DNA from: an uncultured Muribaculaceae bacterium
GTDB lineage: Bacteria; Bacteroidota; Bacteroidia; Bacteroidales; Muribaculaceae
Assembly (NCBI GenBank): GCA_947628305.1
Contig: CANQZG010000008.1
Coordinates: forward strand, 62,001-126,000
Direction: 5' to 3'
Length of the DNA: 64,000 bases
Notes under the pieces: generated by a model
What the model was told of the DNA's origin: nothing
Databases searched by the model: none
The model's input: only the letters and a program-made list of their open reading frames with translations
Translations under genes and position numbers: made by a program
In this document: piece by piece, positions 12,593-62,061 of the stretch
Layout of the letters: the number at the start of each line of letters is the position of its first letter
Numbering within the stretch: the first letter of the stretch is position 1

Positions 12593-14257
12593 ATGGCAAG
12601 AACAAGAGACGCTACCATTCGGGAAGTCACGCAGACATATCTGTCCGCATTGGATACGGCGAACCCGCCCGACGAAACGGTCGTCGCGGCGGACTTACTG
12701 GAACAAGTCAACGCGGTGCTGGAAATCGAGAACGCGTCGCGCCCCAGAGGACAGAAATGGCAGTTGCTGACGGCGCTTACGGCGGCGCAGATCGCGGACA
12801 TCATTATGGCGTGCTATCACGTCGTTAATATCGACATGCTCGCTGCGTCCGGCGGCAGAGCCATGACGGACCAGACGCTGCTCGCGTATTACGCGCCGAG
12901 CGGGGAGTCCGAGGGGATTTATGTTTCCGACGAAGCGAAGTTCCGGCAGATCGCGAAAGCATATTCGTATAATATCACGGAGCGGGACTTGGCGCGGGTC
13001 ATGCAGATCCTGCACGACGAGTCGCCTGTCGTGAAGCGCACGGATAATCGCGACTTCGTTCCTCTCGCGAACGGGGTGTTCGATTACGCGTCGAAAACGC
13101 TTCTGCCGTTTTCGCCGGAATACGTCTTTATTGCGAAGGCGGCGGTCGGCTACAATCCGCTTGCGGTCAATCCGACGCTACATAACGCCGACGACGGAAC
13201 GGATTGGGACGTCGAAAGCTGGATGCAGGGTCTGTCGGACGATCCGAACGTCGTGGAACTGCTGTGGAAGCTCATTGGCGCCACGCTGCGACCGTTCGTC
13301 TCATGGAATAAAGCCGCATGGTTTTATTCCGAGACCGGAAACAACGGGAAAGGGACGCTGTGCGCGTTGATGAAGAATATTCTCGGTGAGAAAGCGTATA
13401 CATCCATTCCGCTGTCGGATTTCTCGAAGGAGTTTATTCTCGAAGGTCTGACGCGGGTATCGGCGATCATCACGGACGAGAACGACGTGGGCGTGTTCAT
13501 TGACAAAGCAGCGAACCTGAAGGCGATCATCACAGGGGACAGCATTCTGATCAATCGAAAGTTCAAAAATTCCGTTTCGTATATGTTCCGCGGCATGATG
13601 GTGCAGTGCGTCAACGAGCTGCCCCGCGTCAAGGATAAGTCCGAGTCGTTTTACAGGCGGCAGCTGGTGGTTCCGTTCTCGAAATGCTTCACGGGGCAGG
13701 AGCGGAAGTATATCAAGGACGAGTATCTGCGCAGGCAGGACGTGCTGGAATACGTCGTGGCAAAGGTGCTGAATATGGATTACTATGACTTGCCCGAACC
13801 GGCGGCATGCGTCAGGCTGTTGTCCGAGTATCGCGAGTACAACGATCCTGTCAGGCAATTCGTCAGCGACGTGTTCCCGCAGTTGCGCTGGGATCTGCTT
13901 CCGTATACGTTCCTGTATGATCTATATAAGGCATGGTTCCGGGAGGCGTCGCCGTCCGGGCAGATGCAGGGACGGAATACGTTCGTGATGGACCTGATGC
14001 ATGCATTACACGGAAATTCGTCGTGGGCATGCGGCAGTCCACAGGCGAAGATCCGGTCGAAGGACCGCATGAACGGTCCGGAGCCGTTGATCGCACGGTA
14101 CAATCTGAAGGAATGGTTCAATCCGAATTACGCCGGACATGATACGGATAAGTTGTGTCTGCCGCCGTTACGGGATAATTACGCGGGAGTGCAGCGCGTC
14201 GTGCCGTCAGGGCTGTATATCGCAGCAAGCGATGAAGACGACGAAGAAGAAGGGTAG
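12593..14257 (+). CDS. Phage/plasmid P4-type (D5/SF3) replicative helicase
   Basis: 'AWFYSETGNNGKGTLCALMKNILGEKAYTSIPLSDFSKEF' Walker A, 'IITDEND', 'FKNSVSYMFRGMMVQCVNELPRVKDKSESFYRR'. Confidence 0.85.
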   Translation: MARTRDATIREVTQTYLSALDTANPPDETVVAADLLEQVNAVLEIENASRPRGQKWQLLTALTAAQIADIIMACYHVVNIDMLAASGGRAMTDQTLLAYYAPSGESEGIYVSDEAKFRQIAKAYSYNITERDLARVMQILHDESPVVKRTDNRDFVPLANGVFDYASKTLLPFSPEYVFIAKAAVGYNPLAVNPTLHNADDGTDWDVESWMQGLSDDPNVVELLWKLIGATLRPFVSWNKAAWFYSETGNNGKGTLCALMKNILGEKAYTSIPLSDFSKEFILEGLTRVSAIITDENDVGVFIDKAANLKAIITGDSILINRKFKNSVSYMFRGMMVQCVNELPRVKDKSESFYRRQLVVPFSKCFTGQERKYIKDEYLRRQDVLEYVVAKVLNMDYYDLPEPAACVRLLSEYREYNDPVRQFVSDVFPQLRWDLLPYTFLYDLYKAWFREASPSGQMQGRNTFVMDLMHALHGNSSWACGSPQAKIRSKDRMNGPEPLIARYNLKEWFNPNYAGHDTDKLCLPPLRDNYAGVQRVVPSGLYIAASDEDDEEEG

Positions 14258-19934: not shown

Positions 19935-22412
19935 TTGGATATGAGAGGGCTTTTTGTGAACGGAACTGTTATGTTGAAGAAAGTCGAATCCCTGCTTGCC
20001 CGCGGGTATATGCGCGTGCGGGTACAGCAGATGTTCCGCGGCGGGCAGAAGCCGGACGGATGGTTCGGCTGTTTTGCGACGATCTATGAGTATCCGCATG
20101 ATCGGTTTCGTTTGACAGGCGTCTGCGCGGATTCCGTCGCTACGGATTGTTATCTGCTGGTCAAGGGAAAGCTGACGATGTCGAACGGGTATGAACAGGT
20201 GGCTTGTTCTCAAGTGCTTCTGGACGTTGACGACTACAACGGCATTATCACGTTTCTTTCCGGCAGGCGGTTTCCGCGTGTCGGTCGCGTCGAGGCTGTG
20301 CGTATGTATACGGCATACGGCAATATGCTGTTGCGTAAGATTCTGGAAGATCCGGATGGCGTAAGGACCAAGGCGGGCTTGTCAAAGGATCTGATGCGGG
20401 ACATCGTTGACGGCATGCGCATGCGGAACGTCGAGCAGTATCTTCAGCAGACGCTGCCCACACTGTCGGAGAAGTATTTAGGGCGTATCCTGCGGTCGTA
20501 CCGGGGAAACGTCGTCAATATCATTCAAGAGGATCCGTATCGACTGCTGGACGCCGGTGTTCCGTTCAAGATCGCCGACGGCATCGCCCTGCAGGCGTTG
20601 CATATGCGTCCCGACGCGCCGGAACGCATCGGGAACGGCATTGTCTATGTCATGAAAGACTTGCTGAACGGGGATACATATCTGAATCTGTCGGAGAACG
20701 ACGTTTTTACGTCGCTGTATGAACGAACGACGGAATTACTGGGTCTGCAGTGCGACAGGGTCGCGTTCGCGGACATGATCCGCAACGCTTGCGCGAAGAA
20801 GGCGTCGCTGTTGACCTTGCGCGTCGAGAAGGGCGAGAACCATCTGTATCGTTCCGACACGTATATCAACGAGCTGCGCATCACGACGTTCGTCAATGAA
20901 AGTCATCTTGTGCCGTTGGCGTCGGATCCTTCGACGGCGATCGTCTGCTACGAAGGCTCCCGCGGTAAATTGTTGACGGACGAACAGCGGAACGCCGTGC
21001 GTACGGCGGCGATGAACGGTCTGTCGTGCATCACCGGCGGACCCGGTCGCGGAAAGACGTTTGCCATTGATTGCCTCGCTTATGTGTTCCGGACGCGTCA
21101 TGTTGTGTCGTCCGCATCGCTTCGTTCGCATGTCGGCGCGACGGTGCTGCTCGCGCCTACCGGCAAGGCGGTCCGCCGTCTGCGGCAGTTGCGCGTGTGC
21201 CGTGATATGGACCTGCCCGTGTATACGATCGCAAAGTTTTTGCAGATCGCGAATGCCAACAAGTATATGTTCTCGTCGGTGGAGCATTTCATCGTCGACG
21301 AGGCATCCATGGTGTCGACGGACGACATGGGGCAGTTGATGATACACATGCAGGCGTATCGCCGCGACGGGTCGCGGGCGACGCTGACGCTGGTCGGCGA
21401 CGTCGATCAGTTGCCGCCCGTGGACGTCGGGTGTCCGTTCCGGGATATTCTTACGTCGGGAATGACGCCTGTGGCGTCTTTGACGGCGAATCTGCGGACG
21501 GATGCGCCGTCGATCGCAGAGAACGCCGACCGTGTGCGTGCCGGGGACGTCCGTCTGAAGTCCGCGTTGACATCGGACGGGGCTATCGAGTCCGTATTGG
21601 TCCCGACGGGCGACGACGAGGCGTCGCTGAAATACGTGCTGAATTTTTATAAGACGGCGCTGCTGCAGAACGATTTGAAAGACGTCGCGGTGCTGTCGCC
21701 CGTGAATAAGGGACCCGTGGGCGTCAGAGCGTTGAACATCACGCTGCAGGATCTTCTGAATCCGTCCCGGCAGGCGGTTTTTACGGCTGTCCCTTCCCCG
21801 GGGTATCCTATGGCGAGGACGCGTTGCGATACGCGGGGCGCGAGCGTTCCGGGGTTGTTCTATCGCGAGAGCGAAGAGAACCGGACGACCGTTCGCGTAG
21901 GCGACCGCGTGATGCTGACGAAGAATTGCGACAGTATCGAGTATTTTTACGTCGACAGGGAGTGCATGGTCAATCCCGACGCCGTGCCGACGTTCGATCT
22001 GATGAAGCCTGTCGTAGACAGGGACAGCGGCGTGTGCAACGGGGATTGCGGCGTCGTGCTGGACTTTACGCCCGCCGACGGCAATTGTCTGCTTGCGGTG
22101 ACGATTGGACTTGACGACGGACGCATCGCGCGGGTGACCGAGGACTTCTTTGAGCATGTCGCGTTAGCGTACGCGATGACGGTCCATAAGGCGCAGGGGT
22201 GCGAGTACGACACGGTCCTTTACGTCAGTCCGCGGCGTCTGCTGTCGACGCCCGGAGGGTTTGCAAGCAGAAATCTTGTATACACCGCGCTGACGCGCGC
22301 CAAGTCGTGCATGGAGATCATCGGTTCCAAGGAAGCGTTGGATCGGTGCATTCTGACGCCGTCGGCAGACAGGCATTCGATGCTGAAAGACCGCTTGAAC
22401 GATGTGATTTGA
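19935..22412 (+). CDS. RecD2/TraA-like SF1B DNA helicase
   Basis: 'LTDEQRNAVRTAAMNGLSCITGGPGRGKTFAIDCL', 'FIVDEASMVSTDDMGQL', 'LVGDVDQLPPVDVGCPFRDIL', 'AYAMTVHKAQGCEYDTVLY'. Confidence 0.9.
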   Translation: MDMRGLFVNGTVMLKKVESLLARGYMRVRVQQMFRGGQKPDGWFGCFATIYEYPHDRFRLTGVCADSVATDCYLLVKGKLTMSNGYEQVACSQVLLDVDDYNGIITFLSGRRFPRVGRVEAVRMYTAYGNMLLRKILEDPDGVRTKAGLSKDLMRDIVDGMRMRNVEQYLQQTLPTLSEKYLGRILRSYRGNVVNIIQEDPYRLLDAGVPFKIADGIALQALHMRPDAPERIGNGIVYVMKDLLNGDTYLNLSENDVFTSLYERTTELLGLQCDRVAFADMIRNACAKKASLLTLRVEKGENHLYRSDTYINELRITTFVNESHLVPLASDPSTAIVCYEGSRGKLLTDEQRNAVRTAAMNGLSCITGGPGRGKTFAIDCLAYVFRTRHVVSSASLRSHVGATVLLAPTGKAVRRLRQLRVCRDMDLPVYTIAKFLQIANANKYMFSSVEHFIVDEASMVSTDDMGQLMIHMQAYRRDGSRATLTLVGDVDQLPPVDVGCPFRDILTSGMTPVASLTANLRTDAPSIAENADRVRAGDVRLKSALTSDGAIESVLVPTGDDEASLKYVLNFYKTALLQNDLKDVAVLSPVNKGPVGVRALNITLQDLLNPSRQAVFTAVPSPGYPMARTRCDTRGASVPGLFYRESEENRTTVRVGDRVMLTKNCDSIEYFYVDRECMVNPDAVPTFDLMKPVVDRDSGVCNGDCGVVLDFTPADGNCLLAVTIGLDDGRIARVTEDFFEHVALAYAMTVHKAQGCEYDTVLYVSPRRLLSTPGGFASRNLVYTALTRAKSCMEIIGSKEALDRCILTPSADRHSMLKDRLNDVI

Positions 22413-23880: not shown

Positions 23881-23909
23881 TTGACTTTTCACGCGGTCCG
23901 TGCTATAAT
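23881..23909 (+). promoter_or_regulatory. SigmaA-type promoter
   Basis: ttgact-17-tataat, overlaps the ORF-track N-terminus of the RNAP ORF. Confidence 0.75.
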
Positions 23910-24042: not shown

Positions 24043-27000
24043 ATGAGCGTTACGTTGCGCTATTTCAATGAGTACGTCTATTACAGAGCCGTAACGAATT
24101 TAGGAAAATACCGTGCGGAAAACGGCGGGGAGCCGTTGACGACGTCGCAGGCGCGCGCGTTGCGCACGGCTGTCGGGAAAGCTCTTGAACAAAATTCCGT
24201 GACGGTCGCCACGGCGAACAAGACGGCGATGTTCTCGGCGCTTCGCGAAGCGTTCGGTCCGGACGGCGCGTCGGCGTTTACCGACGCGGATTATACGGAT
24301 GCCGTCGGGACGTTTTCCCGGTTTACCGGCATCGCGTCCGCTTCGGGATCTCGCGACGGGGCGACGACGTTCGCGGACCCCGTCGTTCCGCTGTCGCCGT
24401 ACGACCCCGCGCATGCGCTCCGGGACGCGTTCATGCGGAACGGATCGCAGTTGCTTTTCGCGAGACGCGGCGATATTATGACCGACAGGCAGACGCCTGC
24501 CGAGATCGATCCGTCGACGGTCCCGCTGCAGACGGCTCGCGGACTGCAGACCGCGAACGGACACGATCCGTGGAGCACGCGTCTGCGTTTGCTTTCGTCT
24601 GCGGATAAGTCCGGCGCGTCAATGCTTGCGCCGTATATGTCGCAGGAAGAGTACGAGACGGCGTCTGCGTGGATGGAACGCGCCGGGGAAGACGACGAGA
24701 CGAAATTCATGTCCCTTCAGGCGCTTCGGAAGAGCGCCGGACTGCTTCGCCTGATGAAGGAAAACGGAATCTCTTATGAGATCCTCGCCGACGATAATCC
24801 CGGACAGCTGCGCGCCCGCATCACGGGGACGCGCACCAGCGTCCGCATCGCGGATACGCGGGATAACGAAGCGTATATCGGACGCGTATACGATAACGGG
24901 ATCGTGTATCGGTATATGACGAATAAGCCTGTCGCGCAAGACGTGCGGTTGACCGAAGGGTATACGCCGCGGAATGCACAGGAGTGTTTTGATTTGCTGC
25001 AATACGCGATGGGGCATTCGGTGCGCCGCTGGGACGACAGCGCGAACGTCGGCGAAGCGACGGACGTCCTGTCGCGCCGTCAGCGCTGGACGAACGGCGA
25101 GAAGCGCTTTGCGTCCGTGCGTGTGAATCAGTCTTACCATTCGGCACAGAACGCGTCGTATTTCATCGGCGCTCTGCCGTCGAACGAGCGCTACAGCGTT
25201 TTGCTTCATGCGGATTATCAGCGCGGGCGCGAGCTGGTCCATTTCAGTACCCCGTCCGCCGCGGAACAGTATCTGAAGGACGCCGTGTCGTCGGCGCGGG
25301 ATGCGTTCGCACAGGATGTGCGGCTGGACGAGTTGATCGCCGCGGCGGCGGAGCATAAAGACGATGAAGATTACGCGTTTGATTTCAGCGGCGACGAGGT
25401 CGTCGCGTCCGTACAGAGGGGTTACTGGGATATTCTGACCTCGAAGGAACCGCTGGAGGTGTATCACCCCGGCGCGAAGTATGATGCGTATCTGGAAGGG
25501 CTGGACGAGAGCGACGACGACGTCGCCGAGGCGGTATCGCTGCGTGATGTTCCGACTTATGAGGGAACGCCCGAGGAGAAGGTCCGTCAGCACATGGCGG
25601 ATAATCTGGATTATTTCATCGGTACGTTTGAGCCGGACGCGGAAGGTCTGCGGTTCGATCCGACGCGCGTCAGTCAGTATATGTCGTCGGCATACAGCAT
25701 GTTCTCGAATGAGCGGAACATGATCCGCGTGCTCCGCGCGTGCGATATTCCTGCCGAAGCATTGCGCGGGAATCATTACTACACGTCATACGTCAAGGAT
25801 AATCTGATCAAGTTCGACCCGTCGACGGCTTTGCCGATGTGCAAGTCGGAGAGTCCGTTTGTAAAGCGGACGTTTGAGAAGATCGCCTCAACGATCCGTG
25901 AGTCCGGCTGCGAGCTGGACGACGAGGCGGTACTGATGGATGCACAGGGCATCGTGCATTATACCGCGAGCAGGATCACCGGGCGGAACGTGACGGACAG
26001 CAAGGGGAATCCGAATAAGAAGACGTTCGAGGGGGAAATCGGTCAGGTGTTTATTCCCCGAGAGGACGGTATGATCGAGACGCAGTTTGCCGGTACGGAT
26101 AATTACTTGTTCGTGCCGGGATACGAAGCGTCGGTCGTGACCGGCGCGTCTACCGCCGGACAGACGCTGGAGCAAAGGACACGTCTGCGCGGGTATGAAC
26201 AGATCCTGCACGACGAGATCGCGCACACGCTCCGCGGCGACCTGATGCTGACGGACGCCGAGGTCGGTTCGCCCGCCGTGCTGAACAGCACGTACCGGCA
26301 CATGTACGGCGAACGGCATCCGCTGGATTGGGTCGAGCAGACGACGGAAGAGGGCATGGACGACGCGCTGCGCAACGCAATTATTCAGACCGAGGCGCGT
26401 CGCGTGAAGTACGACGGCATGTTCCGCGAAGGGTCTACGGTCAACGCGGACTATCGTGCGAACCAGTATGCGCAACCGGGCGACATCATCAACGATAACT
26501 TCTATAGCGCCTACGACGCGTCCGGGCGGCGCAATATGGCGTTGCTTTCGGAGGAAGGCAACGGGTATTTCGATAAGACGATGACCTCTTCGGGCATGGA
26601 GCAGGGCATGACGCGGTATCTGTGCGAAGGCACGGAAGTATTGCCCGACGGGTCGATGAAGCCGTCCGATAAGGGCGACGCCGTGCCGTTGATGAAGCAT
26701 GACGCGTTCCGTTTTGCCGAGTTCGATCCGTGGGATCGTCTGTTGATGACGTCTATGAACGCCATCAAGGCGTCAAGCATCACGAAGCCGTCGAAGGTCG
26801 CGCTGGTGACGTTGGACGGGCTGAACAGCAACGACGGGTTCATCGTCAGCAGTGCGTTCGCGGAAGCGAATCAGATCCGTTTGCCGAACGGATTGATCCG
26901 TCCGTTGCAGAAAGGCGATAAGATCTCGGATATGCATGGCAACAAGGGCGTCATTTCCGTGGTCGTCGATCCGGAAATGGACCCCGAGGAGGCGAAGGAG

Positions 27001-51227: not shown

Positions 51228-51782
51228 TTACGTCGCGGACCTGTACAGGTCGCGTACGACCGCGGCGAATTTTTCGGCAGTCTCTTGCGGGATGCCGTCG
51301 GCGCCTTCTTTGTCGTTGACGAAGATGACGTCGTAGGGGTAGTACTCTACGTTGTCGTCGGACGCGTTGCCGTAGACGGTGCCTTGTAAAGAAGGGCGCT
51401 TCACGAGCAACGTCGCGACGCGGAAGGACTTGTCGCGGAACGCGCGGGTTACTTTGGCGATCTCGTTCGGCTCTCTGCAGTGCACAAAGAAGACGGGTTC
51501 TGCTTCGACGTTCTCGCTGCACCATGCGACGTCGTTGAGGATGGTCGTCAGCGGATAGTCGTTGTATTCGGTAAAGAGCCGCTTCAGGTCGGACAGGAGC
51601 TTGCGTCCCTTTTCCGATTTATCGTCGTCCCAGCCGCCGACGCGCGCGAGGCGTTTGATCGGTGTGATCGTCGAGAGGTTATAGACGACGTGTTCGCCGT
51701 CGTCGATTTCGACGGTTTTGCCGAGCGTTTGGATCAGCGCGTCCTTGCCGGACGCGCCTTTGCCGTTGATGATGATGACCAT
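51228..51782 (-). CDS. P-loop kinase-like protein
   Basis: 'MVIIINGKGASGKDALIQTLGK'. Confidence 0.6.
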   Translation of the reverse strand: MVIIINGKGASGKDALIQTLGKTVEIDDGEHVVYNLSTITPIKRLARVGGWDDDKSEKGRKLLSDLKRLFTEYNDYPLTTILNDVAWCSENVEAEPVFFVHCREPNEIAKVTRAFRDKSFRVATLLVKRPSLQGTVYGNASDDNVEYYPYDVIFVNDKEGADGIPQETAEKFAAVVRDLYRSAT

Positions 51783-51785
51783 TTG

Positions 51786-52328
51786 TCATGCCTCCTGTTC
51801 GGATGATTTGCTGTAGTCGGCGAAGTCGATCTCCAGCGCGATGATTTTCTTGGTGTTCGACTCAAACGTGCCATAGACGTCGTAGTAGCCGTCGCCGTAG
51901 CCCGACGTAGAGAAGAATCCGCTGTCGCAGAAGAACACGTTGCCGTATGCCTTGGCGACATCACTGCGTTTTCGTATATTGAAGTCGTCGGGTTTGTCGT
52001 GGAAGAATCCTGCGAGACCGGAATCGACGCCGATGGAACCGATATAGTCTGTGTTTCGGTGCGCGTCGGCGATCCTGTCGCCGACAAGACCGATGTGGTA
52101 AATGCCGATGCGGTCGACATTGGTATAGTAGATGCGTTTCTTTTCGGCGTTCGCTTCCGGGCTCGGATACCAGTGCTTGCTGGTGTACGCGATGCAGAGG
52201 AAGGTCCCGTCGGCGACCTCGAGGTGATCGAGGCGGCACCAGACGTCCTTGTTGTAGCAGGGATCGGTCACGTCGACGGAACCGTGGAAATCTTTTGCAC
52301 CGCAATATAGCAGATGACGGGATGACAT
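51786..52328 (-). CDS. Uncharacterised protein
   Basis: ORF, RBS 'gaaaggagg' upstream on - strand. Confidence 0.6.
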   Translation of the reverse strand: MSSRHLLYCGAKDFHGSVDVTDPCYNKDVWCRLDHLEVADGTFLCIAYTSKHWYPSPEANAEKKRIYYTNVDRIGIYHIGLVGDRIADAHRNTDYIGSIGVDSGLAGFFHDKPDDFNIRKRSDVAKAYGNVFFCDSGFFSTSGYGDGYYDVYGTFESNTKKIIALEIDFADYSKSSEQEA

Positions 52329-52341
52329 TTGTTTCCTCCTT

Positions 52342-52725
52342 TCACGGCGTTGCCGCGGCGTAAAGCGGGCTGTCCGCCAAGGCTTTGCGGATGAAATTCG
52401 CAGAGCACTTGCGGATCGACTCTTCAGCCTCGTTGTAGAAGGTCACCGGGTACTTATAGCGCGTCGGCTTGATGCCGAGGATGGTGCACTTCTCGCCGCG
52501 GCTGTTGTAGAAAGAACGCCCGATGTCGGTGCTGTCGATGCCGTATTTTTCTTTGTCGTAGGCGAGATTTTCGGATAAGCGGTACATCTGGGCGTTGTTG
52601 ATGACGCCGTCGCCGGTGAAGACGTATGTGCGTTCGGCGTTCGGGTGCTGTGCTGTGAAACGGTCGATGGAATCGACGCAATCGTAGCGTTGTTCCCCGT
52701 TTTCACGGTAACAGATAACGATCAT
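52342..52725 (-). CDS. Uncharacterised small protein
   Basis: ORF with RBS. Confidence 0.55.
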   Translation of the reverse strand: MIVICYRENGEQRYDCVDSIDRFTAQHPNAERTYVFTGDGVINNAQMYRLSENLAYDKEKYGIDSTDIGRSFYNSRGEKCTILGIKPTRYKYPVTFYNEAEESIRKCSANFIRKALADSPLYAAATP

Positions 52726-52755
52726 AGTGAATGGCTCCTTTCGTATTGTGATTGT

Positions 52756-52959
52756 TTAGTCGGTGACGGTGATCGGGAAGGTCTCGTCGAGCGTATCCGA
52801 GTCGGGAACGTACTGCGGATAAGGCGGTAGCCGAACATCTCTCCAGTGATCGAGGATATAGACGTGCACAGCGATGGGGTCGGTCACGTCGACGTCGTCC
52901 GGCAACGTCAGTTCGGTTTGCCCGGTGACCGTGTAGGTGATGTGAAATACAGCTTTCAT
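52756..52959 (-). CDS. Uncharacterised small protein
   Basis: ORF with RBS. Confidence 0.5.
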   Translation of the reverse strand: MKAVFHITYTVTGQTELTLPDDVDVTDPIAVHVYILDHWRDVRLPPYPQYVPDSDTLDETFPITVTD

Positions 52960-53228
52960 GTTGCGTTTTCCTTTCTGTTGAGCGGGTAGCAGTCGTAGGA
53001 CGCCGTCGCTTCGCCGTGTTCGCTTGCGGAATAGACATATGTTGTCAGAGCATGCGACGGGTCTTCGATGTCGGATTCGACGATGACGAGAGGGACTTCC
53101 GGTTTGGTCTTATCGTCGTGAAGAAATGCGAGGTAGACTCCGGGGCAGGAGCCTTCTTCGTCGCCGATGCTGATCTGCAGTTTGCCCTTCAGGTGAGGCA
53201 GAGGGATTGATATGGTCGCGGGTGTCAC
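52956..53228 (-). CDS. Uncharacterised small protein
   Basis: 4-bp overlapping ORF chain. Confidence 0.5.
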   Translation of the reverse strand: MTPATISIPLPHLKGKLQISIGDEEGSCPGVYLAFLHDDKTKPEVPLVIVESDIEDPSHALTTYVYSASEHGEATASYDCYPLNRKENAT

Positions 53229-53503
53229 GGCTGATGACCTCCTTTAGTCGATGTGACGGTTGTTTGTTCCTGACGCGGAACGAGAGGGCGCAGATATTTG
53301 AGGGCATACCGAAGCGCGGCTTCGTAGCCGACAAGGTATGCCTCCCGTTCCGGTGCGGGAACATTGTGGACGTCGGCAAAGTTGCGCACGGTTGCGTGTT
53401 CGCGTCTGATGCGGTGCATCTGTGCGGTCAATTTGGAGACGACTTCTGTGAGTGCTTTATTATCGTTTGGCATGATTTTATCCTTTTGTTCGGCAGTTTT
53501 CAA
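53225..53503 (-). CDS. Uncharacterised small protein
   Basis: 4-bp overlapping ORF chain. Confidence 0.5.
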   Translation of the reverse strand: MKTAEQKDKIMPNDNKALTEVVSKLTAQMHRIRREHATVRNFADVHNVPAPEREAYLVGYEAALRYALKYLRPLVPRQEQTTVTSTKGGHQP

Positions 53504-53751
53504 CGGGGTCCGTACCCGTTCGGGTCACGGTCGTTGACGCCGAGGCGCGGCTGCGGTTCGGCGTATTTGATGCCGATATTGCCGAGCAGCGCCACCTTTT
53601 CCGGGGTGATGTCGTTGTTTTTCAGCCATTCGTTCAGAATGTCGGCAGCCTCTTTTGTCGTGACCGGACGTTCGAAGGTGAAGCCGAGACGGACGGTGCG
53701 GCTCTGCGGCTCGTCGTCAACGCTCGGTATCGGATTTGGGCGATTGTTCAT
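53500..53751 (-). CDS. Uncharacterised small protein
   Basis: 4-bp overlapping ORF chain. Confidence 0.5.
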   Translation of the reverse strand: MNNRPNPIPSVDDEPQSRTVRLGFTFERPVTTKEAADILNEWLKNNDITPEKVALLGNIGIKYAEPQPRLGVNDRDPNGYGPR

Positions 53752-54135: not shown

Positions 54136-54717
54136 TCATCGTTTCTCGATGATTTTGTCGATGATGCCGAAGTTGAGCGCCGATGTAGCCGTCAGCCAAT
54201 GGTCGCGGTCGCAGGCTTTCTCGATTTCGTCTACGTTCTTGTCGCAATTTCTTGCGAGAATGGACTGCAGACGTTCCTTGGTCCGTATGATGTGGTTCGC
54301 TTGGATCAGGATGTCGGAGGCTTGTCCTTGAGCGCCGCCGAGGGGCTGATGGATCATGACTTCGGCGTTCGGCAGACAGATGCGCTTGCCTTTCGCGCCG
54401 GAAGAGAGCAGGAAGGCGCCCATGGACGCCGCCATGCCGATGCAAATGGTGGACACGTCAGGCTTGATGAAGTTCATCGTGTCGTAGATGGCGAGACCTG
54501 CCGAGACAGACCCTCCGGGGCTGTTGATGTACAGGCAGATGTCCTTGTCGGCGTCCTGCGATTCGAGATACAGGAGCTGTGCGCAGATGACGGCGGCGGT
54601 TGTGTCGGTGATTTCTTCCTGAAGCATGATGATGCGGTCGTTGAGCAAACGCGAGAAGAGATCGTAAGCGCGTTCGCCGTTGGATGTCCTTTCAATGACG
54701 TTCGGGATCAGAGGCAT
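54136..54717 (-). CDS. clpP: ATP-dependent Clp protease proteolytic subunit ClpP
   Basis: '[78 protein letters not shown]'. Confidence 0.95.
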
Positions 54718-54856: not shown

Positions 54857-55426
54857 CTATATGATGTTCATGGGGTCTTTCGGACACCACATGATGACGT
54901 CTCCTTTTTGCAGGGAAGCAGGCATGTCGATCAGTCGTTGGTTCGCGCTTCCCCGGAAAAGGGCAGTTGCTTTGACTTCCTGTAGGAAGGGTCCGTCCAC
55001 GACGACGTCGCATAGCGACAGGATGTCGGGAATGAGCTGAGTATCGGCTATGTCATGTTCGTCGGCGAACCATGCGCCGATGAACGGCTTTCCGTCCTCG
55101 AAGTGTATGACGCGCCCGGTGTATAGCCATATGGTCTTGCTTGGGAGTTCTGTCTTGACGCGTCGAAGCAGGTGCAGGATCGCCGGTTGGTTCTCCGGCT
55201 CCAGAGGTTCGCCGCCGAGGAGCGTCAGCCCTTCGACCTTTGCGTCGCGCAAAAGGTCTATGACGGAATCTTCGACGGCTTCGTCGAAGGGGATGCCGAC
55301 GGAAAAATCCCAGAGCTCGCTGTTGAAACAGCCGGGGCATCTGTTGCGACAGCCGGTGACAAACAGGGATACGCGGAAGCCTGTGCCGTTGGCGATGTCG
55401 TGATTGATGATGTACGCGTAGTGCAT
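54857..55426 (-). CDS. nrdG: Anaerobic ribonucleoside-triphosphate reductase activating protein (radical SAM)
   Basis: 'NGTGFRVSLFVTGCRNRCPGCFN', 'LTLLGGEPLEPENQPAILHLLRRV'. Confidence 0.9.
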   Translation of the reverse strand: MHYAYIINHDIANGTGFRVSLFVTGCRNRCPGCFNSELWDFSVGIPFDEAVEDSVIDLLRDAKVEGLTLLGGEPLEPENQPAILHLLRRVKTELPSKTIWLYTGRVIHFEDGKPFIGAWFADEHDIADTQLIPDILSLCDVVVDGPFLQEVKATALFRGSANQRLIDMPASLQKGDVIMWCPKDPMNII

Positions 55427-55500: not shown

Positions 55501-55634
55501 TGGTGCGGACGGCAGGATTCGAACCTGCAGATAACGAAAGAATGGAGGTTTTGACAACATGGAAACAGATGCGTACTTTACAGAAGTATTGTCATGAGGG
55601 AAAAAGTTGCGTCTTCCAGTTGCGCCACGTCCGC
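55501..55634 (-). other. tRNA-like gene with abnormal central insertion
   Basis: Acceptor GCGGACG/CGTCCGC + ACCA, D-stem GCG/CGC, T-arm GCAGG-TTCGAAT-CCTGC; total 134 nt, no canonical 7-nt anticodon loop. Confidence 0.6.
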
Positions 55635-55800: not shown

Positions 55801-56494
55801 CACGGTTAAGTGGACTGTTTCTTGCCCCGTAAGGCTATCGTGTACAGTCTCTGCATTCAGAAAGATACTTTAAGGTGTACCCGAAAACGCATTTGCGTTT
55901 TGCTTTCAGTTTCTGTCGAATAGTCTCGTAAGAGACGTTCGGGATCTTCTTTGAAAGCCATCGTGCACATGCGGCGTAGGACTCGAACGCAACGATTTCG
56001 CCGTCACGGCAGAGCGAGACGGGCTTTTTCTGTTCGGCGGTCCGTTCGCCTTCGGCGACGTACCGCAGATTACGGTAGTCGTTGTTGTGTTCATTGTCGT
56101 CGCGGTGTTCGGTCTTGTATCCGGCAGAGCGGGGTCCGAGCCAGCATTCCGCGACTGCGTTGCAGATCGGAATGTGTACGATTCGCGCGTGCGGTCCGCG
56201 TCCGCCGAGACGCACCGAAGCGACGTATCGGTTTGCCGTTTCGTCAAGTCTGATTTGGCATTGTTTTTTCGACTTGACGTTGCGGAAGATGGCGCCGTTT
56301 TCGTTGACTTCGTAGAGGAAGTTGAGCGAGGGTATCTTTCTGAACTCAAGGTTTGCATTTGATTGCATCTCTTGATGCCTCCTGAATTATGATTTTACTT
56401 CTGACCCCTGATGGGAGTCCGGTTCAGGAAACTTCTACAGTTTTCGTAGAATTTACGATAATTGTCGGGCATTTCCGTGGCGATTCGTTGGATA
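55801..56494 (-). other. Intron 3 of nrdD, carries HNH endonuclease ORF
   Basis: Exon-terminal T, intron-terminal G; removal restores RRVTGYLTGDYL reading frame. Confidence 0.75.
55835..56368 (-). CDS. HNH-type homing endonuclease inside nrdD intron 3
   Basis: 'HARIVHIPICNAVAECWLG...KTEHRDDNEHNNDYRNLRYV' HNH-like; C-terminal DNA-binding-like repeat. Confidence 0.75.
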   Translation of the reverse strand: MQSNANLEFRKIPSLNFLYEVNENGAIFRNVKSKKQCQIRLDETANRYVASVRLGGRGPHARIVHIPICNAVAECWLGPRSAGYKTEHRDDNEHNNDYRNLRYVAEGERTAEQKKPVSLCRDGEIVAFESYAACARWLSKKIPNVSYETIRQKLKAKRKCVFGYTLKYLSECRDCTR

Positions 56495-57398
56495 ACCCGG
56501 TGACACGGCGCAGGCGGCGGATGTTATTGCTTCCGCACACGGGGCACGTGTTCGCGATTTCGTCGGTGTAGCCGCAGTCCATGCAAGTGTCGTTCGGCAC
56601 GTTGATGGCAAAATACGGTATATCCTTGTCCATCGCGTAGTTGACGAGCGTCTCGAGCGCGCCGAGGTTGTTCTTGGCGGTCGCGTCGAGCTCTACATAG
56701 CAGATTTCTCCCGCGGATGCGTATCCGGCAAGTTGAGATTCGATGTTGATCTTTTCAAACGGGTCGATCTCTTTCCAGACGGGCACGTGCGTAGAGTTCG
56801 TGAAGAACTCTTTGTCGGAGACGTCGGGGATGACGCCCCAGCGGTCTTTGAACTTCTGCATAGCAGTATAGCAAAGATTCTCTGCAGGTGTGTAATATAC
56901 CCCAAAATTTAAGCGATACTGTTTCTTATACTCGGCACAGCGGTCTTTGAAAAGCTGTTCGATGCGTTTCGCCGCAGTCATGCCGCGGGGGTCGGTGTGG
57001 TCGCATCCGAGCAGGATCTGCAGACATTCTGCAAGACCTAACTGTCCCAGAGCGAGCGTGCCGTGCTTGAGCGCCGAAAGAGTCGTCTTGCCGTCGAAGC
57101 CCTCCATGCATCCGTTCTGGTACATGAACGGCGCGGATGACGGCGGCTGGGATGCGATATGGTTGAAGCGTTCGAGGAGCATTTCTTTGGCGTCGTTGAT
57201 GTAGGGGTCGAGCGTCTTCAGGAACGCGTCGATAATGACATCATCGGACGCCTGTGCAACGTCGACGCCGTTCTCTTCGAGGGCTTGCTTCGTGTACATG
57301 GCGACGGTCGGAAGGATGATCGTGACGGGGCAGATGTTTCCGCGTCCGTCTTTGAGCTGACCGAGTCCGTTGATGTCGTATCCGTTGGCAGTTCTGCA
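56495..57398 (-). CDS. nrdD: NrdD exon 3
   Basis: 'CRTANGYDINGLGQLKDGRGNICPVTIILPTVAMYTK ... CMDCGYTDEIANTCPVCGSNNIRRLRRVTG'. Confidence 0.85.
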
Positions 57399-57906
57399 CA
57401 TAGGATTTCTGTCATCACTGACAGCACTGACTATATTATCTTTCGTCCGTTTGGACGAGTAGTCGCCTGCTTGGAGTATGTGCCTATCTCATACTCTACT
57501 CCCTTACATTCATCAGGGATAGTCGATACACATTTCAGTCTAAAAGGGTAAATTGATATTTGTCTACAGTGAATACGTTTTCGTTTGTTTTTTGAATGAG
57601 ATTTCTATTCAGATTTAGTACGCGCGAGGCATAGCGAATGGAAGGAAATTCGGTTGTTGTATTTGTTGTTGTGTCTTTGCAGACGCTGCTTGACAGGTCG
57701 AATCGTTTGACCGATATAGATTTTTCCGTTTTGTTTATTTATAATCCGGTATATATACATGCTGCTATCAATTCCTTTAGACTGTTTAGCACGGTCTCAA
57801 CTCTATCAATACTGCCGTGAAGATAGAGCCCTAACCGTTAGCCCCGCGATAGCGGGACACCCTCGGGCGAGGTTCAAGCGATTTTAGATGGGCTGCAGTT
57901 ACACTT
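57399..57906 (-). other. Intron 2 of nrdD, carries GIY-YIG remnant
   Basis: Exon-terminal T (ATGGGT), intron-terminal G; joining gives ATMG-CRTANG. Confidence 0.75.
57605..57760 (-). pseudogene. Truncated GIY-YIG homing endonuclease (51 aa)
   Basis: MYIYRIINKQNGKIYIGQTIRPVKQRLQRHNNKYNNRISFHSLCLARTKSE*. Confidence 0.65.
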
Positions 57907-58243: not shown

Positions 58244-58514
58244 CGTTATGTTCACATGAAGTCGTTACTTTCATGCAGTTCTCTTATGAACTTCTCTGTC
58301 TTTCGACAGATGGTCAGACTATATCTTCACCCCATGCGAATGGGCATGGGGGGCTGCCGTTTCGAGCCACTTGGCTCTACTCCACGTTGGATGTGAATAG
58401 TCGTTCGGCGTTGCCCGTCACAGACGGGTTTAGCACAGGATCGTCTCGAATGAGAGAGTTTCCCTGTTTAGGCAGCTATGTTCCCTGCATTACTGCAAGG
58501 TCGCCCCAACATTA
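58244..58514 (-). other. Intron 1 of nrdD, ORF-less group I intron
   Basis: - strand 'GCCGAACGACTATTC' (R) and 'GAAGATATAGTCTGA' (S); exon-terminal T, intron-terminal G. Confidence 0.85.
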
Positions 58515-59413
58515 AGGTTGTGGAACATCGCTTCGGTCGCCTGCTTGACCTCTTCGTTTGTCTGCTCGATGGCGTAACGGTAGACGTCAGGCTGGTTGCA
58601 GTAGAGCGGATCGGTGATGCTTCGCGTCGTGTCTGAAATCTTGAAGTCGGGCTGGTTTGCGATGAATTTCATGCCGACTTTGAAGTGTTTCGCGAAGGAC
58701 TTGCGGACGTAAGGCACCATTGTCCAGTCGAGGTGGGATGCCGCGACGCCTCCGAACTGGCAGAGGCTCTGCAATTGGAAAAGTACCGCGACGAGCTGCA
58801 TCGCCGACTTGACTGACCCGGCGGGTCGGACGTCGGTTTGACGCGTGGTGAACCCTTCGGCAAGAAGTCTGTCGAGGGGTACGGTGAGACAGTTGTGAAG
58901 TCCGACGGCGTAGGAATCGAGGTCGTGGATGTAGATCTCGTTGTTGTCATGGTGCTTTCGCGCCATTTTCGACACGAGATTCGTCAACGCGTACTCTTTC
59001 GCGACAAGACTTCGGGCTTCGCCCATGCGCCCGCCGAAGGACCGTTCGTCAAGGTTGGCGTTCTGGTTCTGGACGTTCGTCGCGAGGAGTTTTTCGCCGA
59101 TTTGTTTCATCAGCGACGAGGTCTTCTCACGTTCTCGCGTCCGTTCGTTTCGGTAGGTGATGTAGGCGCGCGCGACGTCTTTGCGGTCGGATGACATCAG
59201 TTTGTCTTCGACCATGTCTTGGATCTGTTCGACGTTAAACACGCGTCCTTGTTCGGCACATTCGCGCTCGATCTCGCAGGCGATATTCTCGGCGAGCAGC
59301 TTGCTGTTCGCGGTAATGCGACCGTCTACGGCACGGATAGCTTTCTTGATCGCCTCCGTGATGCGGTTTGTGTCGAACGAGACTTCGCGACCGTCCCGTT
59401 TGATGATTGTCAT
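58515..59413 (-). CDS. nrdD: NrdD exon 1 (anaerobic ribonucleoside-triphosphate reductase, N-terminus with ATP-cone)
   Basis: 'MTIIKRDGREVSFDTNRITEAIKKAIRAVDGRI ... EIYIHDLDSYAVGLHNCL'. Confidence 0.9.
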
Positions 59414-59445
59414 GAGGATGTCTCCTTTCTTTTCGTGATATACTC

Positions 59446-59474
59446 ATTATAGCATAAAGTATTGCAAAAATCAA
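59446..59474 (-). promoter_or_regulatory. SigmaA-type promoter, - strand (nrdD operon)
   Basis: Reverse complement TTGATTTTTGCAATACTTTATGCTATAAT, 17-bp spacer. Confidence 0.8.
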
Positions 59475-59480
59475 GAGATT

Positions 59481-60335
59481 TTAGCTTTTTTCCCGGCATT
59501 CCGCCGACTTTTTCGCGACGCGGTTCGCGGCTCTGATTTGCTTGCGATAAGGGCAGTCGGTGACGTCGCAGTGTGTGGTATCGTGCGGTTTGGCGAGGTA
59601 GCATGGGATGCCGTATTCGTAGTTCGAATAGGTCCATTTTGCCCATTCTTCGCCGTCGGTTTTGTTTGCCGCATAGAGCTGTCGATGTCGCAGGTTGAGG
59701 GACGCACAATGCTGTTTATCGTCGACCGAGAAGAAGGGAAAGCAGACGTCGACGCCGTACATCCGCATGCGAGACGTGTAGATGTCCCAGATCTCGGCGC
59801 CGTTCAGGTCGTATGCGATCTTGTAGTTCAGGTCGCGTTCCTGCTCGTCGGACAGTTCGACGTCTTTCTGTTCCCGGAACAATGAGACGTAATGCCGGAA
59901 CCAGTACTGCTTTGGGATATACGCAAGCAGGTCGCAGTAGATGTCTGTACAGAGCTTCTGTTTTTTTCGATACGGCATTTTGCATATCTGCTTGGTACAG
60001 TCCATGTGGCTGACCATTTCGGCGATGTGCTGCAGCGCGTCTTCAGGTTTGTTGAGGATAGCGTCGCGGATGACTTGACGCGCAAGTCTGATGCGGGCTT
60101 CGCCTTCTTCGATGCAGACGTTCTCGAACGCTTGGAATTCGCGAACGGCGGCGTCCGCTTGCTTGTCGTATGCATCGCGTTCTTCGTCGGGCAGCGCCTC
60201 GGCGTTTTGCTTCGGCAGTTTGATGTGCTTTGCTTTGAGCATAGACGCGACAATGCCGTTATTGTTCGGTGGAAGTTTGACGAACGGATAGATGCGTGTG
60301 CAATAGTGCGGATGTTTGATCAGGCGGGTCATCAT
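59481..60335 (-). CDS. Cys-motif paralog 1, uncharacterised
   Basis: 'VCFPFFSVDDKQHC ... IPCYLAKPHDTTHCDVTDCPYRK'. Confidence 0.65.
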   Translation of the reverse strand: MMTRLIKHPHYCTRIYPFVKLPPNNNGIVASMLKAKHIKLPKQNAEALPDEERDAYDKQADAAVREFQAFENVCIEEGEARIRLARQVIRDAILNKPEDALQHIAEMVSHMDCTKQICKMPYRKKQKLCTDIYCDLLAYIPKQYWFRHYVSLFREQKDVELSDEQERDLNYKIAYDLNGAEIWDIYTSRMRMYGVDVCFPFFSVDDKQHCASLNLRHRQLYAANKTDGEEWAKWTYSNYEYGIPCYLAKPHDTTHCDVTDCPYRKQIRAANRVAKKSAECREKS

Positions 60336-60371: not shown

Positions 60372-60659
60372 TCAGGAAGCAAGTCCTTCGGACAGAACAG
60401 CTTCGTAGTAGTCGTATTCGTCCTTAAATGTGTCGTCCGTCTTGAAATCCTGCAGGGTATCGAAAATCTTGTCGACGATGTCTGCTATAGAGACGTTCGA
60501 CACGTATGCGTCGGGCTCCAGATTCGGCGCTTCGTCGGTGTCGAAATAGAACCACCATTCTCCGATTTGACAGACAGTCCCGGCGCCTTCGTTCGGGTCG
60601 GTTACGAGTTGAACGAGATGCTTTGCAAGTCCGTCGGCGATCATTTGCTTTGTGATCAT
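60372..60659 (-). CDS. Uncharacterised small acidic protein
   Basis: Start MITKQMIADGLAKHL with RBS. Confidence 0.55.
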   Translation of the reverse strand: MITKQMIADGLAKHLVQLVTDPNEGAGTVCQIGEWWFYFDTDEAPNLEPDAYVSNVSIADIVDKIFDTLQDFKTDDTFKDEYDYYEAVLSEGLAS

Positions 60660-61342
60660 GAGGATCCTTCCTTTCTTTCTCGCATGAGAAGTTTGTATGG
60701 ACAGCGTACCGATACGATACGCGGGTTGGTGTTCGTTCTGCATGTATCGAACGCTTCTTTGTCGACACAGAAGCACGGGCAGCCTTTGGAGTAGTCGTTC
60801 CGGAAGTACGACGGACTGTCCGGCGCGACGGTCGTGTCAGGACATGTTGCGTCCGTGACGGAGAAGTACGGGCGACAGATAGGTTTATCGTTATGCTTCG
60901 GAAGCAACGTGATGATGTTCCATGTGCGTTCAAGGCTTGACATCGGAATGACGCCGTCGATCGGCTGCGGTTCTTCGGCGAAGTGTTCCCGGAAGCGTTC
61001 CCAGTTGACTTTGTCGGGGTCCGCCGCTTCGGATACCTGTCGGAAATACGGACACGACGGCAGGAATTCTTCGAGTGTCTGTCGGATCTTGCTGTAGAGT
61101 TTTTCGGCGTCGCATGTGATTTCGTATTTGCCTTGCGCTTGTCTTTGTTCGCAAGAGACGGACTTGACCAGCCGTCGGATCTGTTCCGTCGCGCCTTTGG
61201 TATCATGTTTTGCGATCGTGACGACGATGTCGAGGACTTGTTCGCGAATCTCGTGGTTGCGCTGCAGGGCAAACGCGTCGAAGGCGTCGTCTTGATAAGG
61301 TCTGTCTGTTGTTGTACAAGGGTATTTCGGGTATACCTTCAT
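60656..61342 (-). CDS. Cys-motif paralog 2, uncharacterised
   Basis: 'ICRPYFSVTDATCPDT ... CPCFCVDKEAFDTC...VRCPYKL'. Confidence 0.65.
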   Translation of the reverse strand: MKVYPKYPCTTTDRPYQDDAFDAFALQRNHEIREQVLDIVVTIAKHDTKGATEQIRRLVKSVSCEQRQAQGKYEITCDAEKLYSKIRQTLEEFLPSCPYFRQVSEAADPDKVNWERFREHFAEEPQPIDGVIPMSSLERTWNIITLLPKHNDKPICRPYFSVTDATCPDTTVAPDSPSYFRNDYSKGCPCFCVDKEAFDTCRTNTNPRIVSVRCPYKLLMRERKEGSS

Positions 61343-61362
61343 TGTTTCCCTTCTTTCTTTTT

Positions 61363-62061
61363 TTAATTCGGGCAGGTGCAGTGCCTCTGACGGCATCGTC
61401 CGACGGCGTAGCACGGCTTGCGGGTGCCGTCGTCTTTGACGGCGAAGTAGGGGATGCACGGCGGGACGTCGTACCGCAGCATGCAGGTATAGACGGATGC
61501 GAGGATGATTTGCATCGGAACGTCTTCGCCTTCGATAGAGATGTGTACCCCGATGCGCTGTCGGATGTCGTGCAGGATGGCGTCAAGGCGATTGGGGATC
61601 ATGACGTGTTCTTTTGTGAAATACTTTTCGCCGAGTTCGCCGAGATCATTTTTATCGGCGCATACTGCGACGACGACGTCGAGGAGCGCTTTTTGAATTT
61701 CCGTTTCGGAGGTCCCTGCGATCAACGCTTGCAGGAGGCGGAACGCGGCAGCGTTCTGCTCGCGGGTGACACGGTCGCAGAAATCCTCGAAGGTGTCTTT
61801 CGGCAGGTGTCGGGCGACGGATACGTCCTTAAAGAAGATGATCTGGTTATCTTTGCCGTCAGGCACGATGTCCGTCACTTCGTCTACGCCGAAGAAGTCG
61901 GCGACGGCGCGGTATATCTCCGCGATGGCGCTGTGCCAGTCGCCGGGATGCGACGCACGGTCGCACGCGTCGAATTTCGTATGGGTCATGACGATGAAGC
62001 CGTATAGCGCGTTTTTGATGCGAAAGCAGGCTTCAAGGTTGTTTTCGTTAAGGTTTCGCAT
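61363..62061 (-). CDS. Cys-motif paralog 3, uncharacterised
   Basis: 'PPCIPYFAVKDDGTRKPCYAVGRCRQRHCTCPN'. Confidence 0.65.
   Translation of the reverse strand: MRNLNENNLEACFRIKNALYGFIVMTHTKFDACDRASHPGDWHSAIAEIYRAVADFFGVDEVTDIVPDGKDNQIIFFKDVSVARHLPKDTFEDFCDRVTREQNAAAFRLLQALIAGTSETEIQKALLDVVVAVCADKNDLGELGEKYFTKEHVMIPNRLDAILHDIRQRIGVHISIEGEDVPMQIILASVYTCMLRYDVPPCIPYFAVKDDGTRKPCYAVGRCRQRHCTCPN

What the first reader, a model, noticed from the sequence alone, without database searches (positions are those of the whole stretch)
24043..29595. Single-chain RNA polymerase with both beta-type and beta'-type catalytic motifs on a mobile element
One ~1850-aa ORF contains 'KGDKISDMHGNKGVISVVV', matching the beta-subunit GDK..RHGNKGV motif with its two lysines, and about 440 residues later 'EGDFDGDTVGIMVLHTPSAQKEA', matching the beta' NADFDGD Mg-binding loop. 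The order is the same as in cellular beta-beta', so this looks like a self-contained two-barrel RNAP. Such single-chain polymerases are known in outline (for example phage YonO, crAss-like phage RNAPs), but this one is large and sits beside conjugation-type and replication genes. Which promoters it reads and when is unknown.
Basis: partly seen in the sequence, partly recalled or inferred. Interest (0 to 1): 0.92.

Follow-up and report, generated by a model that had tools for sequence, protein, structure and literature searches.

The report
Conjugative element's own single-chain RNA polymerase
A large DNA element that moves between bacteria by mating carries its own complete RNA polymerase as one 1,850-residue protein, and relatives of it sit directly beside the DNA-export gene of one whole class of mating systems, so it probably does a job in DNA transfer that nobody has described.

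Summary
ORF 24043-29595 (+) encodes an intact 1,850-aa protein with a beta-type GDK..HGNKG and a beta'-type DFDGD motif. The profile of 31 homologues matches solved beta' (E 3e-18) and beta (E 1e-7) chains. AlphaFold models (pLDDT 86 and 76) match beta' and beta chains in Foldseek. The catalytic lysines, aspartates, sugar-sensing Arg, bridge-helix Lys and trigger-loop Gln/His are near-invariant in 45 members. The sigma-4-binding flap is missing. It is nearer to cellular RNAP than to YonO/RdRP, and no searched library names it.

The new part is the company it keeps. Relatives in Actinomycetota and Bacillota lie in conjugative elements in the order ClpAAA - unknown - T4CP - RNAP - helical partner. 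The T4CP ends 48-210 bp upstream in most. All 12 plasmids (of 72,556) with this T4CP clade carry the RNAP, and 11 of 11 Streptomyces genomes with this T4CP have it next door. One such plasmid, pGKT2, is proven self-transmissible. So this is very probably an active RNAP dedicated to a conjugation system. Whether it works in the donor, or enters the recipient like a virion RNAP, is open. The assembly's other contigs look Bacteroidota and this contig is compositionally foreign, so its host is uncertain (probably a Gram-positive anaerobe).

The parts
24043..29595 (+). single-chain two-barrel RNA polymerase, 1,850 aa
23881..23909 (+). sigma-A-type promoter of the RNAP gene: TTGACT - 17 bp with extended -10 GTGC - TATAAT
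   Evidence: function inferred from consensus
25894..29427 (+). catalytic region modelled (residues 618-1795), pLDDT 86.1, pTM 0.82; best PDB matches are beta' chains (E 5.7e-12)
26899..26958 (+). DPBB-B (beta-type) active-site loop, residues 953-972: K960 and K968; no flap insert (22 residues between S936 and G958 in most members)
27847..27999 (+). two long helices (residues 1269-1319), placed like the beta' clamp helices that bind sigma region 2 in cellular RNAP
   Evidence: correspondence inferred from profile alignment and model
28162..28290 (+). DPBB-A (beta'-type): R1376xP1378 sugar-sensing loop to DFDGD 1412-1416
28801..28905 (+). bridge helix (residues 1587-1621, one 35-residue helix; K1600, G1605)
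28912..29013 (+). trigger loop (helix-loop-helix, residues 1624-1657; TQ1635-1636, H1643)
29599..30390 (+). 263-aa ORF between RNAP and partner, no homologue among the loci held
30387..31760 (+). predicted partner: 457-aa protein of no known family; homologues lie directly downstream of the RNAP in about 35 loci (2 bp after its stop in Streptomyces)
5914..7122 (+). C-terminal piece of the split T4CP (coupling protein) gene; its other pieces lie at window 1615-1704 and 5393-5515 and upstream of the window (contig 59121-60158, 60547-61962)
   Evidence: PF02534 in the 60580-61980 piece
12593..14257 (+). D5-type primase-helicase (DUF5906/Pox_D5), replication gene of the element
19935..22412 (+). 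RecD2-like helicase

Best explanation
The gene encodes an active DNA-dependent RNA polymerase in one chain: the catalytic half of beta (fork region plus DPBB-B, no flap) joined to the catalytic half of beta' (clamp helices, switch 2, DPBB-A, bridge helix, trigger loop), with a family-specific N-terminal region of about 600 residues. It is a core gene of a MobL/T4CP-type conjugation module and works in that module's transfer cycle. The host's sigma-A RNAP reads the RNAP gene (and most forward-strand units) from consensus-like promoters. The element RNAP, lacking the flap that holds sigma region 4, finds its start sites through its own N-terminal region and/or the helical partner encoded just downstream, and transcribes a limited set of element DNA needed for transfer. 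Shown by computation: fold, intact catalytic residues, missing flap, fixed linkage. Inferred: activity, RNA product, promoter factor, which genes and in which cell.
For: Profile of 31 members against PDB: beta' E 3e-18, from the LPVL..LR segment through switch 2, DFDGD and the SGARGS loop; beta E 1.4e-7 on both sides of the missing flap. Models: catalytic half pLDDT 86, pTM 0.82, Foldseek best matches beta'; N-terminal and beta half pLDDT 76, best matches beta. K960, K968 and R1255 in 44 of 44 sequences with a residue there; R1376, P1378, D1412, D1414, D1416, K1600, Q1636 in 45 of 45; H1643 in 44 of 45. Linkage: T4CP ends 48-210 bp upstream of the RNAP in most Actinomycetota loci and in two Lachnospiraceae loci, with ClpAAA and the 57398-type gene before it; 12 of 12 plasmids with this T4CP clade carry the RNAP and the next nearest T4CPs (Lactiplantibacillus) are on plasmids without it; 11 of 11 Streptomyces genomes with this T4CP have the RNAP adjacent. 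pGKT2, one of the 12, transfers between genera (PMC5640721).
Against: No biochemical or expression data. The N-terminal region and partner have no recognisable function, so promoter choice is a guess. Most forward-strand units of this element already have host-type promoters, which leaves unclear what the element RNAP is needed for. The motif found upstream of Actinomycetota module genes may be a host promoter with an operator. Many of the plasmid records are close copies, so the plasmid co-occurrence rests on about four or five lineages plus the genome loci.
Confidence: 0.6

Rival explanations
1. Recipient-side version: the RNAP is exported with the DNA through the T4CP, as virion RNAPs are injected with phage DNA, and transcribes the incoming leading-region DNA (perhaps still single-stranded) and/or lays RNA primers for second-strand synthesis.
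For: Gene adjacent to the coupling protein in most loci and co-occurring with it; element genes already have host-type promoters, so bulk transcription in the donor needs no extra RNAP; no sigma-4 flap; precedents: host RNAP on Frpo single-strand promoters (PMC11541004), phage virion RNAP fused to the tape measure (PMC10770324).
Against: No export signal was tested or is known for this system; adjacency to the T4CP is equally expected for an ordinary transfer operon; 1,850 aa is large for export; several actinomycete elements transfer double-stranded DNA (PMC4057263), although a MobL relaxase argues for single-stranded transfer.
Confidence: 0.28
2. It is a primase rather than a transcriptase: it makes short RNA primers for element or lagging-strand replication.
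For: Element carries its own replication genes; priming would need no promoter factor.
Against: The element already carries two D5-type primase-helicases; trigger loop, clamp and a large N-terminal region suggest processive synthesis.
Confidence: 0.08
3. It is a YonO/RdRP-like phage-derived RNAP that only happens to sit on a conjugative element.
For: Single chain and no flap, as in YonO/RdRP enzymes (PMC7824862); YonO-like genes occur in the same assembly.
Against: PF05183 does not match it; no match in 50,697 phage records and only short, weak matches in viral contigs; closer to RpoC/RpoB than to YonO-like proteins; linkage conserved across phyla.
Confidence: 0.04
4. A decayed or catalytically inactive protein kept for a structural role.
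For: A few loci have a broken frame (L046, L048).
Against: All catalytic residues are near-invariant in 45 diverged sequences.
Confidence: 0.03

Closest known systems
Cellular multisubunit RNAP beta/beta' (RpoB/RpoC)
   Same: Both barrels, two lysines, DFDGD, sugar-sensing RxP, clamp helices, switch 2, SGARGS-like loop, bridge helix, trigger-loop His
   Different: One chain; no flap; bridge helix and trigger loop only about 30 residues apart; family-specific N-terminal region; much shorter; no sigma-70 region 2 gene on the contig
YonO of Bacillus prophage SPbeta and YonO-like RNAPs (PMC5467207)
   Same: Single-chain RNAP of a mobile element, no flap
   Different: YonO is about 100 kDa, phage-borne, no trigger-loop homology detected in the 2017 paper, in the RdRP (PF05183) clade; this one is about twice as large, on conjugative elements and outside PF05183
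[quoted passage not shown]
   Same: Single-chain two-barrel enzymes with bridge helix and part of the trigger loop
   Different: Phage genes; no phage record matches this family
[quoted passage not shown]
   Same: Two-barrel RNAPs on non-phage mobile elements; NCgl1702-like ones also lack the flap
   Different: Could not be compared (figures, supplements and sequences not held), so this family may already be among them; no conjugation linkage is mentioned in the passages read
Yeast cytoplasmic (killer) plasmid RNAPs
   Same: Barrels fused in one chain on a plasmid (PMC7281927)
   Different: Killer-plasmid beta barrels are said to keep the flap-type SBHM insert (PMC7824862); here it is absent

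Membership tests
Two-barrel (DPBB) RNA polymerase superfamily | DPBB-A with the DxDxD metal-binding triad | tested here: met
   D1412/D1414/D1416 in 45 of 45; PF00623 match; Foldseek beta'
Two-barrel (DPBB) RNA polymerase superfamily | DPBB-B with two catalytic lysines | tested here: met
   K960 and K968 in 44 of 44 with a residue there; beta profile match E 1.4e-7
Two-barrel (DPBB) RNA polymerase superfamily | template-directed RNA synthesis | not testable with these tools
   needs biochemistry
Cellular multisubunit RNAP | beta and beta' as separate chains | tested here: not met
   single 1,850-aa chain; alpha and omega genes were not searched for
Cellular multisubunit RNAP | flap (SBHM) insert in the beta barrel | tested here: not met
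   alignment to T. thermophilus beta spans the flap with a deletion; insert 22-26 residues in most members, 89-98 in five
Cellular multisubunit RNAP | bridge helix and trigger loop | tested here: met
   35-residue helix then helix-loop-helix with TQ..H; assignment by spacing, conservation and model
YonO/QDE-1 (PF05183) clade | match to the RdRP profile | tested here: not met
   no match at E<=1 on this contig, while two other loci in the assembly match
[quoted passage not shown]
   sequence not available here
MobL-type conjugative element | MobL relaxase and T4CP on the same element | tested here: met
   PF18555 E 3e-55, PF02534 E 4e-7
MobL-type conjugative element | transfer between cells | not testable with these tools
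   reported for the relative pGKT2 only (PMC5640721)

The most novel reading that the evidence does not exclude
A conjugation system that exports its own RNA polymerase: the enzyme enters the recipient with the T-strand and transcribes (and primes) the incoming DNA before the host's RNAP can, the mating counterpart of a phage virion RNAP.
Probability: 0.28. Interest if true: 0.93.

Novelty: new variant of a known kind. Interest (0 to 1): 0.76.

Why it matters
Conjugation is generally thought to rely on the host's RNA polymerase. A conjugation module with its own RNAP as a fixed core gene, across Actinomycetota and Bacillota and on an experimentally transmissible plasmid, makes a simple question testable: does mating need a private transcriptase, and in which cell? 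The family also offers a compact single-chain RNAP that keeps clamp helices, bridge helix and trigger loop but lacks the sigma-4 flap, a useful intermediate for dissecting promoter recognition and RNAP evolution.

Tried and rejected
(1) Element-specific promoter in the window's element: a strong repeated motif (TTGAYT-N13-RTGN-TATAMT, 14 of 17 genome-wide copies on this contig) looked like a private promoter. Rejected: it is a textbook sigma-A promoter, and the enrichment has a trivial cause, because the rest of the assembly looks Bacteroidota (RpoB, almost no Shine-Dalgarno) while this contig is compositionally foreign. (2) Phage origin: no match in 50,697 phage records. (3) YonO/RdRP membership: PF05183 does not match. 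(4) A sigma factor on the contig: none of 20 Sigma70_r2 hits lies on it. (5) Partner identity: no Pfam, PHROG, NCBIfam or PDB relative of note. (6) A motif upstream of Actinomycetota module genes (GATAG..[T]gACTGATtTaTCAG..GA, about 50 bp before the start codon, 152 regions, log-likelihood 298 against 93 in a shuffled control) is kept only as a lead: TAGrnT may be a host -10 and CTGAT-TA-TCAG an operator, and many sites are orthologous copies. (7) Counting the RNAP in the same 397 Streptomyces genomes failed twice (tool errors), so the 11 T4CP-positive genomes were read directly. (8) 'yono' hits in Clostridium papers were, as far as I can tell, the author name Yonogi.

Full report
WHAT WAS CHECKED. 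The open frame at 24043-29595 (+) is intact and encodes 1,850 residues. The longer frame that begins at TTG 23881 is not the likely start: this TTG is the -35 box of TTGACTTTTCACGCGGTCCGTGCTATAAT (23881-23909), and homologues align from residue 6, so translation probably starts at ATG 24043 after a leader of about 125 nt.

IS IT AN RNA POLYMERASE BY SEQUENCE? The single sequence gives only weak matches (Pfam Rpb1_2 E 1.5e-6, Rpb2_6 E 1e-4). With 31 relatives the signal is clear: a profile of residues 618-1795 finds cellular beta' chains at E 3e-18. The alignment runs from the LPVL..LR segment, through the clamp coiled coil and the switch-2-like segment GKxxxFKxxLxxxRxxxS, the RxP loop and DFDGD, to the SGARGS-like loop. 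A profile of residues 1-1120 finds beta chains at E 1.4e-7, matching ..D.iVvS.e.. and ..GDKl...HGNKGv.. on either side of the flap, which is deleted in this family. NCBIfam has no model for it; only full-length RNAP models match weakly.

STRUCTURE. AlphaFold2 on the family alignment gave pLDDT 86.1 and pTM 0.82 for residues 618-1795; Foldseek's best PDB matches are beta' chains, E 5.7e-12. Residues 1-1120 gave pLDDT 75.7, with beta chains as best matches, E 1.9e-7. TM-scores are low (0.2-0.3), as expected when one chain is matched to parts of two, so these are fold-level matches only. The model shows a 35-residue helix (residues 1587-1621, K1600/G1605), read here as the bridge helix, followed at once by a helix-loop-helix (1624-1657) with TQ1635-1636 and H1643, read as the trigger loop (TQxxxxxxH in both). 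K1600 and Q1636 are present in 45 of 45 members and H1643 in 44 of 45; the distance from bridge helix to trigger loop is 29-36 residues in all. The assignment to bridge helix and trigger loop is inference from spacing, conservation and the model.

WHICH CLADE. Profile scores against comparators: a cellular RpoC 61 bits, RpoB 27, two YonO-like proteins 18 and 6.5. PF05183 (RdRP/YonO) does not match this contig at E<=1. The family therefore looks like a compact, fused relative of the cellular enzymes rather than of YonO/QDE-1. [quoted passage not shown] Their alignments could not be read here, so prior cataloguing of this family cannot be excluded.

WHERE RELATIVES ARE. tblastn finds none in 50,697 phage records and 13 among 72,556 plasmids: full-length on Rhodococcus pGS01, Gordonia pGKT2 and a Streptomyces plasmid; more distant on Staphylococcus and Lactococcus plasmids. 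All are annotated 'hypothetical protein'. A genome scan gave 47 loci in Actinomycetota (Streptomyces, Arthrobacter, Kribbella, Nocardiopsis and others) and Bacillota (Lachnospiraceae, Oscillospiraceae, Lactococcus). In the tree the Actinomycetota form one group (99/99); the window's protein and a Clostridia sequence (L036) branch next to it with moderate support.

THE LINK TO CONJUGATION. In nearly all Actinomycetota loci with enough flank, and in Lachnospiraceae L052, the order is ClpAAA - unknown gene - T4CP - RNAP; a helical partner follows in about 35 loci. The T4CP ends 48-210 bp before the RNAP frame in most; L046 and L048 are exceptions with broken frames, L053 shows T4CP - RNAP only, and in Staphylococcus the T4CP is about 3 kb upstream. 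In the window's element the same genes occur in the same order and strand: MobL relaxase at contig 51514-53733 (PF18555, E 3e-55), ClpAAA 55596, unknown 57398, T4CP 59121-69128 (split), RNAP, partner; about 17 kb of other genes lie between T4CP and RNAP. Two tests were made in the opposite direction. Searching plasmids with the T4CP at E<=1e-30 returns 12 records, and all 12 are among the 13 with the RNAP; the next nearest T4CPs (Lactiplantibacillus) are on plasmids without it. In 397 Streptomyces genomes 11 have the T4CP, and all 11 have the RNAP within 6.6 kb downstream, 10 in one piece. pGKT2 transfers to Gordonia, Rhodococcus and Nocardia strains (PMC5640721). So the RNAP is a fixed partner of one conjugation system, not a passenger.

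MECHANISM. Shown: fold, complete active site, missing flap, fixed linkage, co-directional partner gene (2 bp after the RNAP stop in Streptomyces). Inferred: the RNAP is active; with no flap and no sigma-70 region 2 gene on the contig, start sites are chosen by the N-terminal region or the partner; the RNAP gene is itself read by the host enzyme; the product serves transfer. Most forward-strand units of this element have their own sigma-A promoters, so bulk transcription by the element RNAP is not needed, which leaves either a small dedicated regulon or action on incoming DNA in the recipient. I give the general statement (active RNAP dedicated to the transfer cycle) 0.6 and the recipient-delivery version 0.28; these overlap.

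THE CONTIG. The window is bases 62001-126000 of a 150,958-bp contig in an assembly without 16S rRNA. Other contigs have 43-51% G+C and almost no Shine-Dalgarno sites, and their RpoB is nearest to PDB 8dkc/9n9p (Bacteroidota enzymes, from memory); this contig has 55% G+C, Shine-Dalgarno sites before about 40% of starts, sigma-A promoters and tetranucleotide correlations of only 0.39-0.65 with the rest. It is probably a mis-binned piece of a Gram-positive element. This does not touch the gene, but any statement about its host would be unsafe.

VERDICT. Observation confirmed, interpretation supported, and the conserved tie to a conjugation system is the real finding. New variant of a known kind (two-barrel single-chain RNAP).

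Noticed in passing
whole contig G000:C8 against other contigs (L074-L079): The window's contig is compositionally foreign to its assembly (tetranucleotides, G+C, Shine-Dalgarno, promoters); the main bin looks Bacteroidota, so the contig is probably mis-binned.
   Followed up: yes
window 1-7122 and contig C8 59121-69128: The T4CP gene is split into at least five pieces (aa 8-396, 397-871, 871-900, 913-953, 955-1339 of its homologue) by intervening sequences; three DUF723/DUF7487 homing-endonuclease-like genes lie among them (window 42-1313, 1718-2875, 3353-4528). No Rfam intron model matches convincingly.
   Followed up: partly
window 58294-58533 (-), with 56424-57401 and 58490-59413: Group I intron (71 bits) between two pieces of what reads as an anaerobic ribonucleotide reductase gene, with an HNH-like gene at 55835-56368.
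   Followed up: partly
window 55504-55634 (-): tRNA-like sequence with a long insertion in the anticodon region (Rfam tRNA 34.6 bits; ARAGORN finds none); possibly an intron-bearing tRNA.
   Followed up: no
contig C8, e.g. window 7215, 15088, 18638, 19910, 23881-23909, 32766: A uniform sigma-A promoter class (GAAAacc-TATTGATTTTT..TTTGTGnTATAATa) repeats before most forward-strand units; the shared sequence around the -35 box may be an operator for an element repressor.
   Followed up: partly
Actinomycetota loci, e.g. L018:1635, 3534, 9977; L006:9105, 13543, 27952: Conserved motif about 50 bp before several module genes across genera (GATAG..ACTGATtTaTCAG..GA), a candidate promoter or operator of the conjugation module.
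   Followed up: partly
G000:C29:21950-22312 and G000:C21:1435-1746 (L072, L073): The same assembly holds two YonO/RdRP-like single-chain RNAP genes (PF05183, E 3.6e-5 and 0.01, both below the curated cut-off).
   Followed up: no
G289, G327, G491 (Streptomyces): T4CP genes with an in-frame insert of about 350 aa near residue 970 (open frame about 1,711 aa), possibly an intein.
   Followed up: no
contig C8 8297-9952 and window 12593-14257: Two D5-type primase-helicase genes, 53% identical, on one element.
   Followed up: no
contig C8 10506-11723: Actin-like (ALP/MreB-like) gene, a possible plasmid segregation motor.
   Followed up: no
window 54136-54717, 54857-55426; contig C8 130853-131881: ClpP, NrdG-like and ThyX-like genes, read from their sequences: phage-like nucleotide-metabolism genes on a conjugative element.
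   Followed up: no
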